The notes beneath the pieces were generated by a model. The model was not told the DNA's origin and ran no database searches. It saw nothing but the letters and a program-made list of their open reading frames with translations. This document shows positions 1,117 to 5,368 of a stretch of 64,000 nucleotides of DNA, piece by piece. The stretch is taken from the NCBI RefSeq assembly GCF_014084105.1, contig NZ_CP048289.1, forward strand, positions 1,063,922-1,127,921. Reading direction: 5' to 3'. Numbering within the stretch: position 1 is the first letter of the stretch; the number at the start of each line of letters is the position of its first letter. The DNA is from Streptacidiphilus sp. P02-A3a. GTDB lineage: Bacteria; Actinomycetota; Actinomycetes; Streptomycetales; Streptomycetaceae. The position numbers and the translations under genes are program-made.

Positions 1117-1662
1117 CTACGCCTCGGTCGCGCCGCTGATCCGGTCCTCGGCCTCCAGGGTCACGCTGACCGCCTGGAGCACCGCCGCGATCCTGATCGC
1201 GGCCTGCACCGTCTCCCGTCCCACGCCCGCCTTGCGCAGCACCTGCTCGTGCGAGTCGAGGCACTGGCCGCAGCCGTTGACCGCGGAGACGGCCAGCGAC
1301 CACAGCTCGAAGTCGACCTTCGGCACGCCCGGGTTGCCGATGACGTTCATCCGCAGCCCGGCCCGCAGCGTCCCGTACTCCTTGTCGGAGAGCAGGTGCA
1401 GCGTCCGGTAGTAGACGTTGTTCATCGCCATCACGGCGGCGGCCGACTTCGCGGCGGTGTACGCCTCCGGGCTCAGCTCCGCCTTCGCCTGCGGCTCCAG
1501 CTCGGCCAGCACCCGCTCGCCGCGCGAGGCGATGGCGCAGGCCAGCACCGTGCCCCAGAGCTGCTGCGCGGGCAGTTCGGAGTTGCCTATGACCGAGCCC
1601 AGGTTCAGCTTCAGGTCCTTGGCGTACTCGGGCAGAGCCGCCTTCAGTTCGTCGAGGGCCAT
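1117..1662 (-). CDS. ahpD: Alkyl hydroperoxide reductase AhpD (AhpD-like carboxymuconolactone decarboxylase fold)
   Basis: Thiol-disulfide protein of 181 residues, the usual AhpD length. The redox motif CGQC with the following SHEQ places Cys131, Cys134 and His138, with Glu119 upstream; these match the Glu-Cys-Cys-His relay known for mycobacterial AhpD. In actinobacteria AhpD reduces oxidised AhpC, linking it to lipoamide-type donors. It starts 4 nt after the ahpC stop codon, so the two are one transcription unit and probably translationally coupled. It acts in the cytoplasm against organic and hydrogen peroxides. Confidence 0.95.
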
Positions 1663-1666
1663 CCGG

Positions 1667-2221
1667 TCACTCGCCCGCGAGCAGCGCGACCGGGTCCAGC
1701 GTGCTCTCGCCCTTGGTCCAGTTGCACGGGCACAGCTCGTCGGTCTGCAGCGCGTCGAGCACCCGCAGCACCTCCTTGGGGTTCCGGCCGACGGAACCGG
1801 CGGTCACCATCACGAACTGGATCTCGTTGTTCGGGTCCACGATGAACACGGCGCGCTGCGCGGTGCCGTCCTCGGCCTCGACCCCGCAGTCCCGCATCAG
1901 CTCGTGCTTGATGTCCGCGAGCATCGGGAAGGGCAGGTCGCGCAGGTCCTTGTGGTCCTTGCGCCAGGCGTGGTGCACGTACTCGGAGTCGCCGGAGACG
2001 CCCAGGACCTGCGCGTCGCGGTCGGCGAACTCCTCGTTCAGCTTGCCGAAGGCGGCGATCTCGGTGGGGCAGACGAAGGTGAAGTCCATCGGCCAGAAGA
2101 AGACGATCCGCCACTTGCCCTGGTAGGACTTCTGGTTGATCGTGGCGAACGCCTTGTCCGCGTCGAGGTCGACGCAGGCGTTCAGTTCGTACTCGGGGAA
2201 CTTGTCACCGATGGTGAGCAC
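1667..2221 (-). CDS. ahpC: Alkyl hydroperoxide reductase AhpC (2-Cys peroxiredoxin)
   Basis: Typical peroxiredoxin of 184 residues. The peroxidatic cysteine is in DFTFVCPTE (Cys51) and the resolving cysteine lies in the C-terminal DELCPCNW block. It reduces H2O2, organic hydroperoxides and peroxynitrite and is re-reduced through AhpD, encoded next. The start is a GTG at 2221 preceded by GAAGGAG at good spacing, giving the family-standard N-terminus [10 protein letters not shown]; a longer open frame upstream is not coding. It is divergently arranged with an OxyR homologue, which in Streptomyces is the known regulator of ahpCD, so peroxide induction is likely. Confidence 0.96.
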
Positions 2222-2362
2222 GTTCGCTCCTTCAGGGTTCCGAGGTGAGGGGTTTCGTCCGGTTCCGCTGGGTTCGCCAGCTCTGCGGATCTCCCATACG
2301 CTGACACATCGCATACTGATCAGTGAAATAGCCATACTTGATCTCATTGATCGGAGGCAGCT
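2222..2362. promoter_or_regulatory. ahpC-oxyR divergent control region
   Basis: The 141-bp spacer between divergent ahpC and oxyR has an A+T-rich patch (about 2293-2352) carrying TGATCA, several ATA/TAT clusters and a GATCTCATTGATC repeat. This is the expected site for OxyR binding and for both promoters. I cannot define an exact OxyR box by eye, so the operator position is inference. Confidence 0.5.
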
Positions 2363-3277
2363 ATCAGCAAGGCACGCACCCCCACCGTCTCCCAGCTCCG
2401 GGCGTTCACCGCGGTAGCCGAGCACCTGCACTTCAGGGATGCCGCGGCGGCGATCGGGATGAGCCAGCCGGCGCTGTCCGGCGCGGTCGCGGCGCTGGAG
2501 GAGGTCCTGGGCGTGCAGCTGGTCGAGCGGACCACCCGCCGGGTGATCATCACCCCCCTGGGCGAGCGCGTGGCCGCCCACGCGCGCGGTGTGCTGGCGG
2601 GGCTGCACGCCCTCAGCGAGGAGGTCGAGGCCTCCCGCCGCCCCTTCACCGGCCCGATGCACCTCGGCGTGATCCCCACCGTGGCGCCCTACCTGCTGCC
2701 CACCGTGCTCCAGTTGGCCCGGGACAGCTACCCCGACCTGGAGCTGCACATCCACGAGGAGCGCACCCCGAGGCTGCTGGAGGGCCTGGCCGCCGGGCGG
2801 CTTGACGTGCTGCTGCTGGCGCTGCCCAGCGTCCCCGGGATGCGCGACCTCCCGCTCTACGACGAGGACTTCGTCCTGATCACCCCGCCCGACCACGAGC
2901 TGGCCGGCCGCACCGACGTCCCCCGGGACCTGCTGCTCGATCTGGACGTGCTGCTGCTGGAGGAGGGCCACTGCCTGCGCGACCAGGCGCTGGAGCTGTG
3001 CCGCGAGGCCGCCGGCGGGACCCGCGCGGCCGGGCTGCCGACGCTGGTGCAGCTGGTCGCGGGCGGGCTCGGGGTGACCCTGCTGCCCGCCACCGCCGTC
3101 GCGGTGGAGACCGGCCGCGCCACCCACCTGGCCACCACCCGCTTCGCGGCCCCCGCCCCCGGCCGCCGGATCGGCCTCGCCCACCGCCCCGGATCGGCCC
3201 GCACCCCCGAGTACCAGCGGCTGGCGGACGCCCTGCGCGAGGCCCTCGCGCCGCTGCCGGTGCGGATAGTCTGCTGA
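2363..3277 (+). CDS. oxyR: LysR-type peroxide sensor OxyR, probably starting at an ATC codon
   Basis: LysR-family regulator of about 304 residues with an N-terminal winged helix-turn-helix (HLHFRDAAAAIGMSQPALSG) and a substrate-binding-like domain. The redox pair Cys204/Cys213 sits in EEGHCLRDQALELC, matching the 9-residue spacing of E. coli OxyR Cys199/Cys208. It is divergent from ahpCD. The start is odd. The frame is closed by TGA at 2348-2350, and there is no ATG, GTG or TTG between that stop and the HTH. The first ATG (2459) would delete the first half of the DNA-binding domain. An ATC at 2363 follows GGAGG (2353-2357) with 5-nt spacing and yields a full-length N-terminus. A non-canonical ATC start is therefore proposed; a sequence error or a pseudogene is the alternative. 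Confidence 0.85.
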   Translation: MSKARTPTVSQLRAFTAVAEHLHFRDAAAAIGMSQPALSGAVAALEEVLGVQLVERTTRRVIITPLGERVAAHARGVLAGLHALSEEVEASRRPFTGPMHLGVIPTVAPYLLPTVLQLARDSYPDLELHIHEERTPRLLEGLAAGRLDVLLLALPSVPGMRDLPLYDEDFVLITPPDHELAGRTDVPRDLLLDLDVLLLEEGHCLRDQALELCREAAGGTRAAGLPTLVQLVAGGLGVTLLPATAVAVETGRATHLATTRFAAPAPGRRIGLAHRPGSARTPEYQRLADALREALAPLPVRIVC

Positions 3278-3293: not shown

Positions 3294-4628
3294 GTGTACC
3301 TGTCGCGCGTACGCATCGACGGCATCAAGGGGTTCCAGGGCGAACGCGCGGTGGACCTGACGCTGACCCGCCCGGACGGCGGCCACGCCGGATGGACGGT
3401 GCTCGCGGGCCGCAACAGCTCCGGCAAGACGAGCCTGTTGCAGGCCGTCGCGGCGGCGCTGCTCACCCCGGTGCAGGCGTACGGGCTGGTGCCCGACCTG
3501 TCCGCCTGGCAATCGGCCGACCCGGGCCTGATCGAGCTGACCCTCACCGGCTCCGCCGCCGACCCGGCCGCCGCGCCGGGGAACCGGGTCGAAGGGGTGG
3601 CCCGGCGGGCGGACATCGAGGTCAGCTGCACCTGGCAGCTCCCGCCCGGGCGGGAGCACCTGCGCCCGCAGGTGGTCTGGCGGCGACGGCCCAGCGGCGG
3701 AGCCGACAGCGCCGAGGCGGATGCCCTGGCCGACTCGGAGTGGGAGTTCGCGCTGCTCGGCAGCATCGCCGGGTACGGCCCCTACCGCCGGATGAGCCGG
3801 TCCGCCGCCCGCCGCGACGACCGGGCCTTCCTCTCCCTCTTCGACGAGGAGGCGGCGCTGAACGACTGCGTCGCCTGGCTGGTGGACGCCGACCACCGGC
3901 GGCTGGAGGGCAGGCCCGGCGCGGCCGAGACGGTGGAGGCGGTACTCGGGCTGCTCGGCGACGGGCTGCTGCCGGACGGCCTGCGGGTGTCCGGGGTGTC
4001 CTCCGAAGGCCTCTCGGTCACCGACGGGAGCAGGGAGTTCCCGCTCATCGAGATGAGCCAGGGCGTGCGCACGGCGGTGGCGCTGGCGGTGTCGCTGATC
4101 TGGGAGCTGGCCCGGGAGGACCCGGCCGCCCACCTCCGGCGGCGCGACGGCCGGTTCGTGGTCAGCCGCCCCGGCATCGTGCTGATCGACGAGATCGACG
4201 CCCACCTGCACGTCACCTGGCAGCAGCGGATCGGCTACTGGCTCAAGGCGCACTTCCCCGAGATCCAGTTCCTGGTCACCACCCACAGCCCGTACATCTG
4301 CCAGGCCGCCGACCCGAACGGCCTGATCCGGCTCGGCGCCCCCGGCGACGGCACCGCCCCGGCGGTGGTGGACGAGGAGCTGTACCGCCGGGTCGTCTAC
4401 GGCAGCGGCGACGACGCGATCCTCTCCGAACTCTTCGGCCTGGAAAGCCCGTTCTCGGCGGAGGCGGAGCAACTGCGGCGTCGTGCGGGTGACCTGGAGG
4501 ACGCGATGCTCGACGGCGAGGCGACCGACAATGAGCGCAGGGAATTCGACGAACTGTCGGAGAAGCTGTCCAGCTCGCTGAGCACCAGGGCCGCCGAAGT
4601 CGCCGCGCGCCTGGGGCGGCCCACGTGA
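3294..4628 (+). CDS. ptuA: AAA/OLD-like ATPase, candidate Septu defence protein PtuA
   Basis: Soluble 444-residue ABC/OLD-class ATPase. Visible motifs are Walker A GRNSSGKT (residues 39-46), a signature-like MSQG (254-257), Walker B GIVLIDEIDAHLH (294-306) and an H-loop TTHSPY (329-334). There is a charged, helix-rich C-terminus after 385. The size, the DEID-x-HLH Walker B and an immediately following HNH nuclease gene overlapping by GTGA match the PtuA-PtuB arrangement of Septu anti-phage systems, where the ATPase assembles with and controls the nuclease. The GTG start at 3294 is preceded by AGGAGG. It lies 16 nt after oxyR but is unlikely to be functionally linked to it. Other OLD-like SMC-type ATPases paired with HNH proteins remain possible. 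Confidence 0.8.
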   Translation: MYLSRVRIDGIKGFQGERAVDLTLTRPDGGHAGWTVLAGRNSSGKTSLLQAVAAALLTPVQAYGLVPDLSAWQSADPGLIELTLTGSAADPAAAPGNRVEGVARRADIEVSCTWQLPPGREHLRPQVVWRRRPSGGADSAEADALADSEWEFALLGSIAGYGPYRRMSRSAARRDDRAFLSLFDEEAALNDCVAWLVDADHRRLEGRPGAAETVEAVLGLLGDGLLPDGLRVSGVSSEGLSVTDGSREFPLIEMSQGVRTAVALAVSLIWELAREDPAAHLRRRDGRFVVSRPGIVLIDEIDAHLHVTWQQRIGYWLKAHFPEIQFLVTTHSPYICQAADPNGLIRLGAPGDGTAPAVVDEELYRRVVYGSGDDAILSELFGLESPFSAEAEQLRRRAGDLEDAMLDGEATDNERREFDELSEKLSSSLSTRAAEVAARLGRPT

Positions 4629-5368
4629 TTCCACTGCGACGCCCGCCGCTGCCGGTCGAGTTGGGGGTTCGGTTGGGTGTCCAGCGGGAGCGTCTGGCGG
4701 CCCGGCCGCGGGTGGACGTGCCCACCGCCCGCGACGCCTGGCGCGGGGCGCGTACCGTCCGCCGGGACATCGGCGAACTGCTGGTGCTGATGGCTGCCGG
4801 ACATGCCCGGTGCATGTACTGCTGCGACAGCCAGGGGACCAGCGTCGACCACTTCGAGCCGATCATGCTGGCGCCGCTGCGGGCCTTCGACTGGTCCAAC
4901 CACCTGCTCGCCTGCTCCTACTGCAACAGCAATCAGAAGCGTGAGCTCTTCCCCCGCGACGACGTCACCCAGGAGTGCCTACTGGTGGACCCGACCGTCG
5001 ATCCGCCGGAGCGGCACCTGCGGCTGCGTCTCGGCGACGGCCGCTACCGGGGCCTGACCGAGAAGGGACGGCGCACCATCGAGGTCTTCGGCCTCAACAG
5101 CCGCCAGAGTCTCGTGCTCGGCCGACTCGATGCCGTGGCCCAGTGCCAGGGCATGCTGCGGGACAGCGTGCGGCAGACCGGCGGCGGGAACCTGGAGGGG
5201 GCCCGACGGATGCTGGCGGCGCTGAGCCGCAGGCCCAACGGCGACGTCCTCTACGCCATGCTGAGCCGCCGGGACCTGCCCGACGCCGCGCGCCTGCTCG
5301 GCGGGGACGACGTGGTGACGGCGCTCCACCAGTTGGCGGCCATGATCGACAAGGCCCGTCTAGTCTGA
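4625..5368 (+). CDS. ptuB: HNH endonuclease, candidate Septu defence protein PtuB
   Basis: Protein of 247 residues with a zinc-stabilised HNH nuclease core: CMYC (Cys63, Cys66), VDHFEPI with the catalytic-type Asp75-His76, Asn92, CSYCN (Cys97, Cys100, Asn101) and Lys105 before LFP. This C-x2-C...DH...N...C-x2-C-N layout is the one seen in PtuB-like and other phage-defence HNH proteins. The N-terminal 50 residues are basic and the C-terminal 100 residues show no recognised domain. The GTG start overlaps the ATPase stop by 4 nt (GTGA), implying coupled translation and a fixed stoichiometry. The predicted role is DNA cleavage or degradation on infection, gated by the ATPase. G+C is like the surroundings, so acquisition is not recent or came from another actinomycete. 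Confidence 0.8.
   Translation: MIPLRRPPLPVELGVRLGVQRERLAARPRVDVPTARDAWRGARTVRRDIGELLVLMAAGHARCMYCCDSQGTSVDHFEPIMLAPLRAFDWSNHLLACSYCNSNQKRELFPRDDVTQECLLVDPTVDPPERHLRLRLGDGRYRGLTEKGRRTIEVFGLNSRQSLVLGRLDAVAQCQGMLRDSVRQTGGGNLEGARRMLAALSRRPNGDVLYAMLSRRDLPDAARLLGGDDVVTALHQLAAMIDKARLV

What the first reader, a model, noticed from the sequence alone, without database searches (positions are those of the whole stretch)
2348..2461. oxyR appears to start at ATC
Seen: in-frame TGA at 2348-2350; no ATG/GTG/TTG/CTG-with-site before the HTH; ATC at 2363 placed 5 nt after GGAGG; the first ATG (2459) would cut the DNA-binding domain in half. Non-canonical AUU/AUC starts are known but rare (for example AUU in infC) and usually mean low, IF3-sensitive translation. 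A peroxide regulator kept deliberately low by its start codon would be notable.
Basis: seen in the sequence. Interest (0 to 1): 0.55.

Follow-up and report, generated by a model that had tools for sequence, protein, structure and literature searches.

The report
Peroxide regulator starting at AUC codon
A bacterial gene for a hydrogen-peroxide sensor appears to begin at the very rare start codon AUC, and the same odd start is kept across many related soil bacteria, perhaps because it sits inside a stretch of DNA that the sensor protein itself is thought to bind.

Summary
Between the in-frame TGA (2348-2350) and the DNA-binding domain, oxyR has no ATG, GTG or TTG; ATC 2363-2365 follows GGAGG by 5 nt. 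It is neither an error nor a private mutation. The 11 orthologues found in 14 genomes of the genus all have TGA-SD-ATC, as do 57 of 58 loci of the main Kitasatospora set and loci of several other genera and of a second family. Among 272 non-redundant loci, 42 carry the site and leave no canonical start before the domain: 41 read ATC, one GTC. The 25 LysR paralogues read in the same genome all offer a canonical codon.

ATC is one arm of a conserved TGAT-N11-ATCA palindrome (2348-2366), a probable OxyR operator that also holds the Shine-Dalgarno and supplies the in-frame TGA. Streptomyces keeps the palindrome but mostly starts at GTG in another frame; a Kitasatospora subclade keeps it but starts at GTG about 50 nt on. 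Operator constraint, selection for weak translation, or both could explain ATC. The genome also has the ATC of infC and the GTC of sigR, a start that IF3 represses in Streptomyces; IF3 control of oxyR is plausible but untested. New variant of a known kind.

The parts
2363..3277 (+). oxyR coding sequence from ATC to stop (304 aa)
   Evidence: Open frame; LysR HTH and substrate domains; OxyR best hit in NCBIfam and PDB sequences
2363..2365 (+). inferred AUC start codon
   Evidence: Only near-cognate codon that recurs at this place after an SD; no canonical alternative
2353..2357 (+). Shine-Dalgarno GGAGG, 5 nt before ATC
   Evidence: Sequence; SD-like words at similar spacing in relatives
2348..2366 (.). 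TGAT-N11-ATCA palindrome, probable OxyR operator; contains the in-frame TGA, the SD and the ATC
   Evidence: Conserved also where it is not the start codon; binding not tested
2348..2350 (+). in-frame TGA five codons before ATC, part of the palindrome
   Evidence: a stop at this position in 93 of 101 loci with in-frame NTC
2317..2332 (.). second conserved box TGATCAGTGAAATAGC upstream, possibly part of the same regulator site
   Evidence: Conserved in three start-codon classes
1667..2221 (-). divergent ahpC (peroxiredoxin)
   Evidence: AhpC-TSA, TIGR03137 best hit, below its cut-off
1117..1662 (-). ahpD
   Evidence: TIGR00777 above cut-off

Best explanation
oxyR is translated from an AUC codon read by initiator tRNA with the help of the GGAGG 5 nt upstream (strongly inferred). 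The codon is AUC because the translation start lies inside an OxyR operator, TGAT-N11-ATCA: the left arm gives the in-frame TGA, the spacer holds the Shine-Dalgarno, the right arm gives ATC; ATG or GTG there would break the right arm (inferred). A consequence, not shown, is that OxyR is made at a low, IF3-limited rate, as for infC (ATC) and sigR (GTC). Odds per step: AUC start 0.93; palindrome is an OxyR operator 0.8; operator constraint is the main reason for ATC 0.6; IF3-limited translation 0.65.
For: 11 of 11 genus orthologues found: TGA, SD, ATC. 42 of 272 non-redundant loci carry the palindrome and have no canonical codon before the HTH; 41 ATC, 1 GTC, eight groups, two families. ATC-to-HTH distance takes 12 values in 57 Kitasatospora-type loci and stays in frame. 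In the no-canonical set 26 synonymous against 23 non-synonymous codon changes after ATC, but 1 against 37 upstream in the same phase (12 pairs). 25 of 25 LysR paralogues read have canonical codons. Palindrome with at most one mismatch in 93 of 98 Streptomyces-type loci against 2.7 expected in mononucleotide shuffles, though the start there is elsewhere. Twelve of 12 loci of a Kitasatospora subclade keep the palindrome and have GTG 48-57 nt after its ATC.
Against: No proteomics or ribosome data. OxyR binding to the palindrome is not tested. In 31 long Kitasatospora loci with an internal GTG the coding signature between ATC and GTG is weak (217 synonymous to 547 non-synonymous, against 83 to 756 upstream), so some may start at GTG. 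Several f17 loci have a GTG inside the SD-like GAGGTG. In 20 of the 42 no-canonical loci a canonical codon lies within 8 codons after the first HTH residue, a poor but not impossible start. GTC in L144, and a probable GTC start in L140/L141 away from the palindrome, suggest that weak starts can be kept without the operator's need. Sites of 13 f17 loci were not found.
Confidence: 0.75

Rival explanations
1. Translational brake: AUC is selected because weak, IF3-sensitive initiation keeps OxyR low; the overlap with the palindrome is incidental.
For: infC ATC and sigR GTC are present in this genome; in Streptomyces coelicolor a GTC start is repressed by IF3 and changing it to a canonical codon deregulates the response (PMC5472188). 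GTC at the homologous codon in L144 and probable GTC in L140/L141.
Against: Streptomyces (78 of 98 loci with GTG at +4) and the Kitasatospora GTG subclade (12 of 12) use canonical codons once off the palindrome.
Confidence: 0.3
2. Translation starts at a canonical codon inside the HTH (ATG 2459 in the window) and gives a truncated protein.
For: It is the first canonical in-frame codon after the TGA.
Against: Removes the first part of the HTH_1 domain; this Met is replaced by Thr in most Kitasatospora loci printed; codons before it evolve as coding sequence in the no-canonical set.
Confidence: 0.03
3. Translation begins out of frame upstream (for example TTG 2347) and a frameshift joins the oxyR frame.
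For: A TTG overlaps the TGA at 2347-2349.
Against: Kitasatospora loci often have CTG there, and the SD lies downstream of it.
Confidence: 0.02
4. Sequencing error or a mutant, decaying copy.
For: Only the odd codon.
Against: The same codon in 10 other species of the genus and in other genera; frame intact over 304 codons.
Confidence: 0.01

Closest known systems
infC (IF3 gene), ATT in E. coli and ATC in Streptomyces (passages of PMC5472188)
   Same: ATC start with AGC as second codon after a GGAGG-type SD, in this very genome
   Different: infC is autoregulated by its own product at translation; no operator overlap was looked for there
sigR of Streptomyces, GTC start repressed by IF3 (Feeney et al. 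2017, PMC5472188; abstract, section 6, Discussion and passages read)
   Same: Oxidative-stress regulator with a non-canonical start after a strong SD; canonical-looking GTG inside the SD is a decoy
   Different: Different codon and gene; IF3 effect shown there, not here; the paper does not speak of an operator at the start codon in the parts I read
OxyR operators of LysR type; Corynebacterium diphtheriae OxyR footprint with T-N11-A motifs (passages of PMC3306370)
   Same: T-N11-A motif with short inverted repeat near a translation start
   Different: That footprint, at another gene (cat), ends 10 nt before the start codon; here the palindrome contains it
ATC start proposed for ribosomal protein L12ae of the archaeon Staphylothermus marinus (passage of PMC2678158)
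   Same: ATC start inferred from alignment
   Different: A single archaeal gene, no conservation or operator described in the passage

Membership tests
OxyR (LysR-type peroxide regulator) | LysR HTH and substrate domains | tested here: met
   PF00126 and PF03466 above cut-offs
OxyR (LysR-type peroxide regulator) | Two redox cysteines in GHCLRDQ...C | tested here: met
   Residues 204 and 213 align with the two cysteines of PDB 6g1b
OxyR (LysR-type peroxide regulator) | Score above the NCBIfam OxyR equivalog cut-off (NF008361; enterobacterial type, recalled) | tested here: not met
   Best hit but 237.7 bits against 329; a cut-off of the model, not a biological property, so I still call the protein OxyR-like by cysteines, neighbours and PDB match
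OxyR (LysR-type peroxide regulator) | Gene next to peroxidase genes | tested here: met
   Divergent ahpC and ahpD
OxyR (LysR-type peroxide regulator) | Activation by hydrogen peroxide | not testable with these tools
   Needs experiment
Genes with a conserved non-canonical, IF3-sensitive start codon | No canonical codon between in-frame stop and conserved domain | tested here: met
   Window; 42 of 272 loci
Genes with a conserved non-canonical, IF3-sensitive start codon | Codon conserved among relatives, with SD | tested here: met
Genes with a conserved non-canonical, IF3-sensitive start codon | Translation repressed by IF3 | not testable with these tools
   Needs reporter and infC alleles
LysR-type operator (T-N11-A) | T-N11-A core with inverted repeat, conserved | tested here: met
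   TGAT-N11-ATCA; 93 of 98 Streptomyces-type loci against 2.7 in shuffles
LysR-type operator (T-N11-A) | Bound by OxyR | not testable with these tools
   Needs a footprint

The most novel reading that the evidence does not exclude
A translation start is built inside its own product's operator, so that one 19-bp palindrome is at once OxyR binding site, ribosome binding site, stop codon and AUC start. OxyR output would be set by DNA binding and by IF3 together, and because infC is a SigR target in Streptomyces (PMC5472188), IF3 would link the SigR and OxyR arms of the oxidative-stress response.
Probability: 0.3. Interest if true: 0.8.

Novelty: new variant of a known kind. Interest (0 to 1): 0.62.

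Why it matters
Very few non-canonical bacterial start codons have been characterised by experiment (so PMC5472188 states). This would add a stress regulator, kept over many genera and two families, give a concrete reason why such a codon can persist (a shared operator), and offer a ready natural experiment: sister lineages in which start and operator are coupled (ATC) or uncoupled (GTG). It also suggests that automatic annotation may misplace the oxyR start in such genomes; I did not check annotations.

Tried and rejected
Sequence error or mutant copy: rejected by relatives. Internal ATG 2459: cuts the HTH, not conserved. Upstream TTG 2347 with frameshift: not conserved. Internal GTG in long Kitasatospora N-termini: not excluded, since the coding signature between ATC and GTG is weak and frame +1 is as free of stops as frame 0. 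GTG or ATG inside GGAGGTG or GGAGATG: judged decoys, by the argument Feeney et al. made for sigR, but not excluded, above all in f17. g4 loci were not counted as decoupled because a GTG lies in an SD-like stretch just before their ATC.

Mended after a recount: one search had mixed five loci of the Kitasatospora GTG subclade, in frame by chance, into the Kitasatospora set; one search repeats the counts without them and those are the numbers given. Dropped rows: loci with identical start regions and L098 (its alignment fell in another frame; read in the N-terminal frame it has ATC) were left out of the 272; one outclass locus with in-frame NTC was left out of the 101; L201 lay beyond the 160-nt scan but has CTATCA in frame 49 codons before the HTH residue. 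The 9-of-13 against 2-of-18 table for f17 was read by eye and typed into.

Literature: ten searches. Listed were 15 of 64, 5 of 5, 12 of 23, 8 of 8, 15 of 55, 12 of 90, 15 of 22, 20 of 44, 7 of 7 and 20 of 36 papers. No listing that I saw reported a non-canonical oxyR start. Most hits for ATC or AUC starts were mitochondrial or off topic. The library lacks most subscription papers.

Full report
What was claimed and what is there. The sequence agrees: TGA 2348-2350 in frame, GGAGG 2353-2357, ATC 2363-2365, no ATG, GTG or TTG before the HTH, first ATG at 2459-2461, codon 33. The frame from ATC gives 304 aa with HTH_1 and LysR_substrate domains, two cysteines (204 and 213) that align with those of the solved regulator 6g1b, and OxyR as best NCBIfam hit, though below that model's cut-off. 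ahpC and ahpD lie divergently, the arrangement I recall for Streptomyces coelicolor (Hahn et al. 2002, not held).

Is it more than chance. The protein search of the same 9.33-Mb genome listed 27 LysR places including this one. I could read 25 of the 26 others; all 25 have at least one canonical codon in the open frame before the same residue. infC in this genome reads GGAGGATCC-ATC-AGC and sigR reads CAGGAGGTGAGTCCC-GTC; ATC for infC and GTC for sigR are the starts that Feeney et al. give for Streptomyces (PMC5472188: abstract, section 6, Discussion and passages read). The two starts in this genome are inferred from that match.

Relatives. In the genus, 11 of 14 genomes gave an orthologue at E <= 1e-60, and all 11 have TGA, an SD, then ATC followed by AGC, AGT or AAT. 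Group g14 is Kitasatospora-like (L202 lies on a contig of 138782 bases, the length of the named K. purpeofusca contig of L001). Of its 58 non-redundant loci outside one subclade, 57 have the palindrome's ATC in frame and open to the HTH, 22 of them with no canonical codon at all; the 58th, L201, lay beyond the scan and has it too. No-canonical ATC loci also occur in g2, g6, g11, g17 and in a second family, f17; ATC-in-frame loci that also have a canonical codon occur in g3, g12 and g13. Of the 257 loci first read, 44 have no canonical codon between the in-frame stop and the HTH: 41 show ATC at this place (39 within the palindrome, plus L020 and L125), L144 shows GTC, L141 neither, and L098 was mis-anchored. 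With 30 f17 loci added and duplicates removed, 42 of 272 are of the no-canonical type with the palindrome: 41 ATC and 1 GTC, from eight groups. Ordinary codons exist at the homologous place too: ATG in L145, in f17 loci L267 and L283, and in outgroup loci L231 and L233-L236.

Coding evidence. In the 57 Kitasatospora-type loci the ATC-to-HTH distance takes 12 values, all whole codons. For the no-canonical set (30 loci, 12 close pairs) changed codons after ATC are 26 synonymous to 23 non-synonymous, and 1 to 37 upstream read in the same phase. For 31 loci with an internal GTG 57 or 69 nt after ATC the signature between ATC and GTG is weak: 217 to 547, against 83 to 756 upstream; frame 0 holds no stops, but neither does frame +1. 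Those loci may start at GTG, although an SD-like word is more often found before ATC.

The palindrome. ATC is the right arm of TGAT-N11-ATCA, 2348-2366. The geometry puts TGA exactly five codons before ATC, so the site itself shuts off longer N-termini; a stop stands there in 93 of 101 loci with in-frame NTC. The site is kept where it is not the start: 93 of 98 Streptomyces-type loci have it with at most one mismatch against 2.7 expected in mononucleotide shuffles, 78 of the 98 with GTG 4 nt after the A of ATC. In 78 such GTG(+4) loci its eight fixed positions average 0.981 agreement, against 0.722 for the 75 upstream bases. In 12 of 12 loci of the Kitasatospora subclade it is kept with AGGCAA in place of the SD, and a GTG lies 48-57 nt after its ATC. 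A second conserved box, TGATCAGTGAAATAGC at 2317-2332, lies upstream in the three sets compared. This looks like a LysR-type site; binding by OxyR is inferred.

Why ATC. Two readings compete and need not exclude each other. Constraint: the codon must read ATC to keep the arm, and most lineages that uncouple start and site use GTG or ATG. In f17 a canonical codon at, or two codons before, the homologous place is commoner where the site was not found (9 of 13 against 2 of 18, Fisher p = 0.0017, counted by eye), but these loci cluster on the tree, so this is few events. Brake: weak IF3-limited initiation is selected, as for sigR; GTC in L144, and GTC after GGGGAG or AGGGAG in L141 and L140 away from the site, support this. 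On a FastTree tree of 108 proteins (a sample of the loci) the presence of in-frame NTC at the palindrome needs 18 changes (L125 was scored as lacking it because its palindrome is degenerate), so it came or went repeatedly; the direction was not inferred. One Streptomyces-type locus, L170, has ATC in frame.

Verdict. Closest known cases are infC and sigR; what differs is the overlap with a probable operator of the gene's own product. In ten literature searches I saw no report of this oxyR start, in a library that lacks most subscription papers and with several listings capped.

Noticed in passing
window 3294-5365 (+): Directly downstream of oxyR lies a pair with overlapping GTGA: an ATPase matching PADLOC PtuA (2.3e-132) and a second gene matching PtuB (3.2e-80), also close to mREase_IV models: a Septu-like defence pair.
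   Followed up: partly
L295 and L296 (own genome, near G000:C1:2954460 and 1215886): infC with ATC and sigR with GTC starts are readable in the window's genome.
   Followed up: yes
L140 and L141 (g16): oxyR shows GTC-AAA after AGGGAG or GGGGAG, away from the palindrome; L141 has no canonical codon in the open frame.
   Followed up: partly
L144 (g8): GTC instead of ATC at the homologous codon, no canonical codon; the palindrome's right arm reads GTCA.
   Followed up: partly
L170 (g9): A Streptomyces-type oxyR with ATC in frame and no GTG at +4.
   Followed up: no
L098 (g1, genome of 76% completeness): oxyR matches only over residues 137-303 in one frame, so its frame is broken after the N-terminus; error or decay not told apart.
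   Followed up: no
G003, G005, G011 (same genus): Three of 14 genus genomes, each at least 99% complete, gave no OxyR match at E <= 1e-60: possible loss.
   Followed up: no
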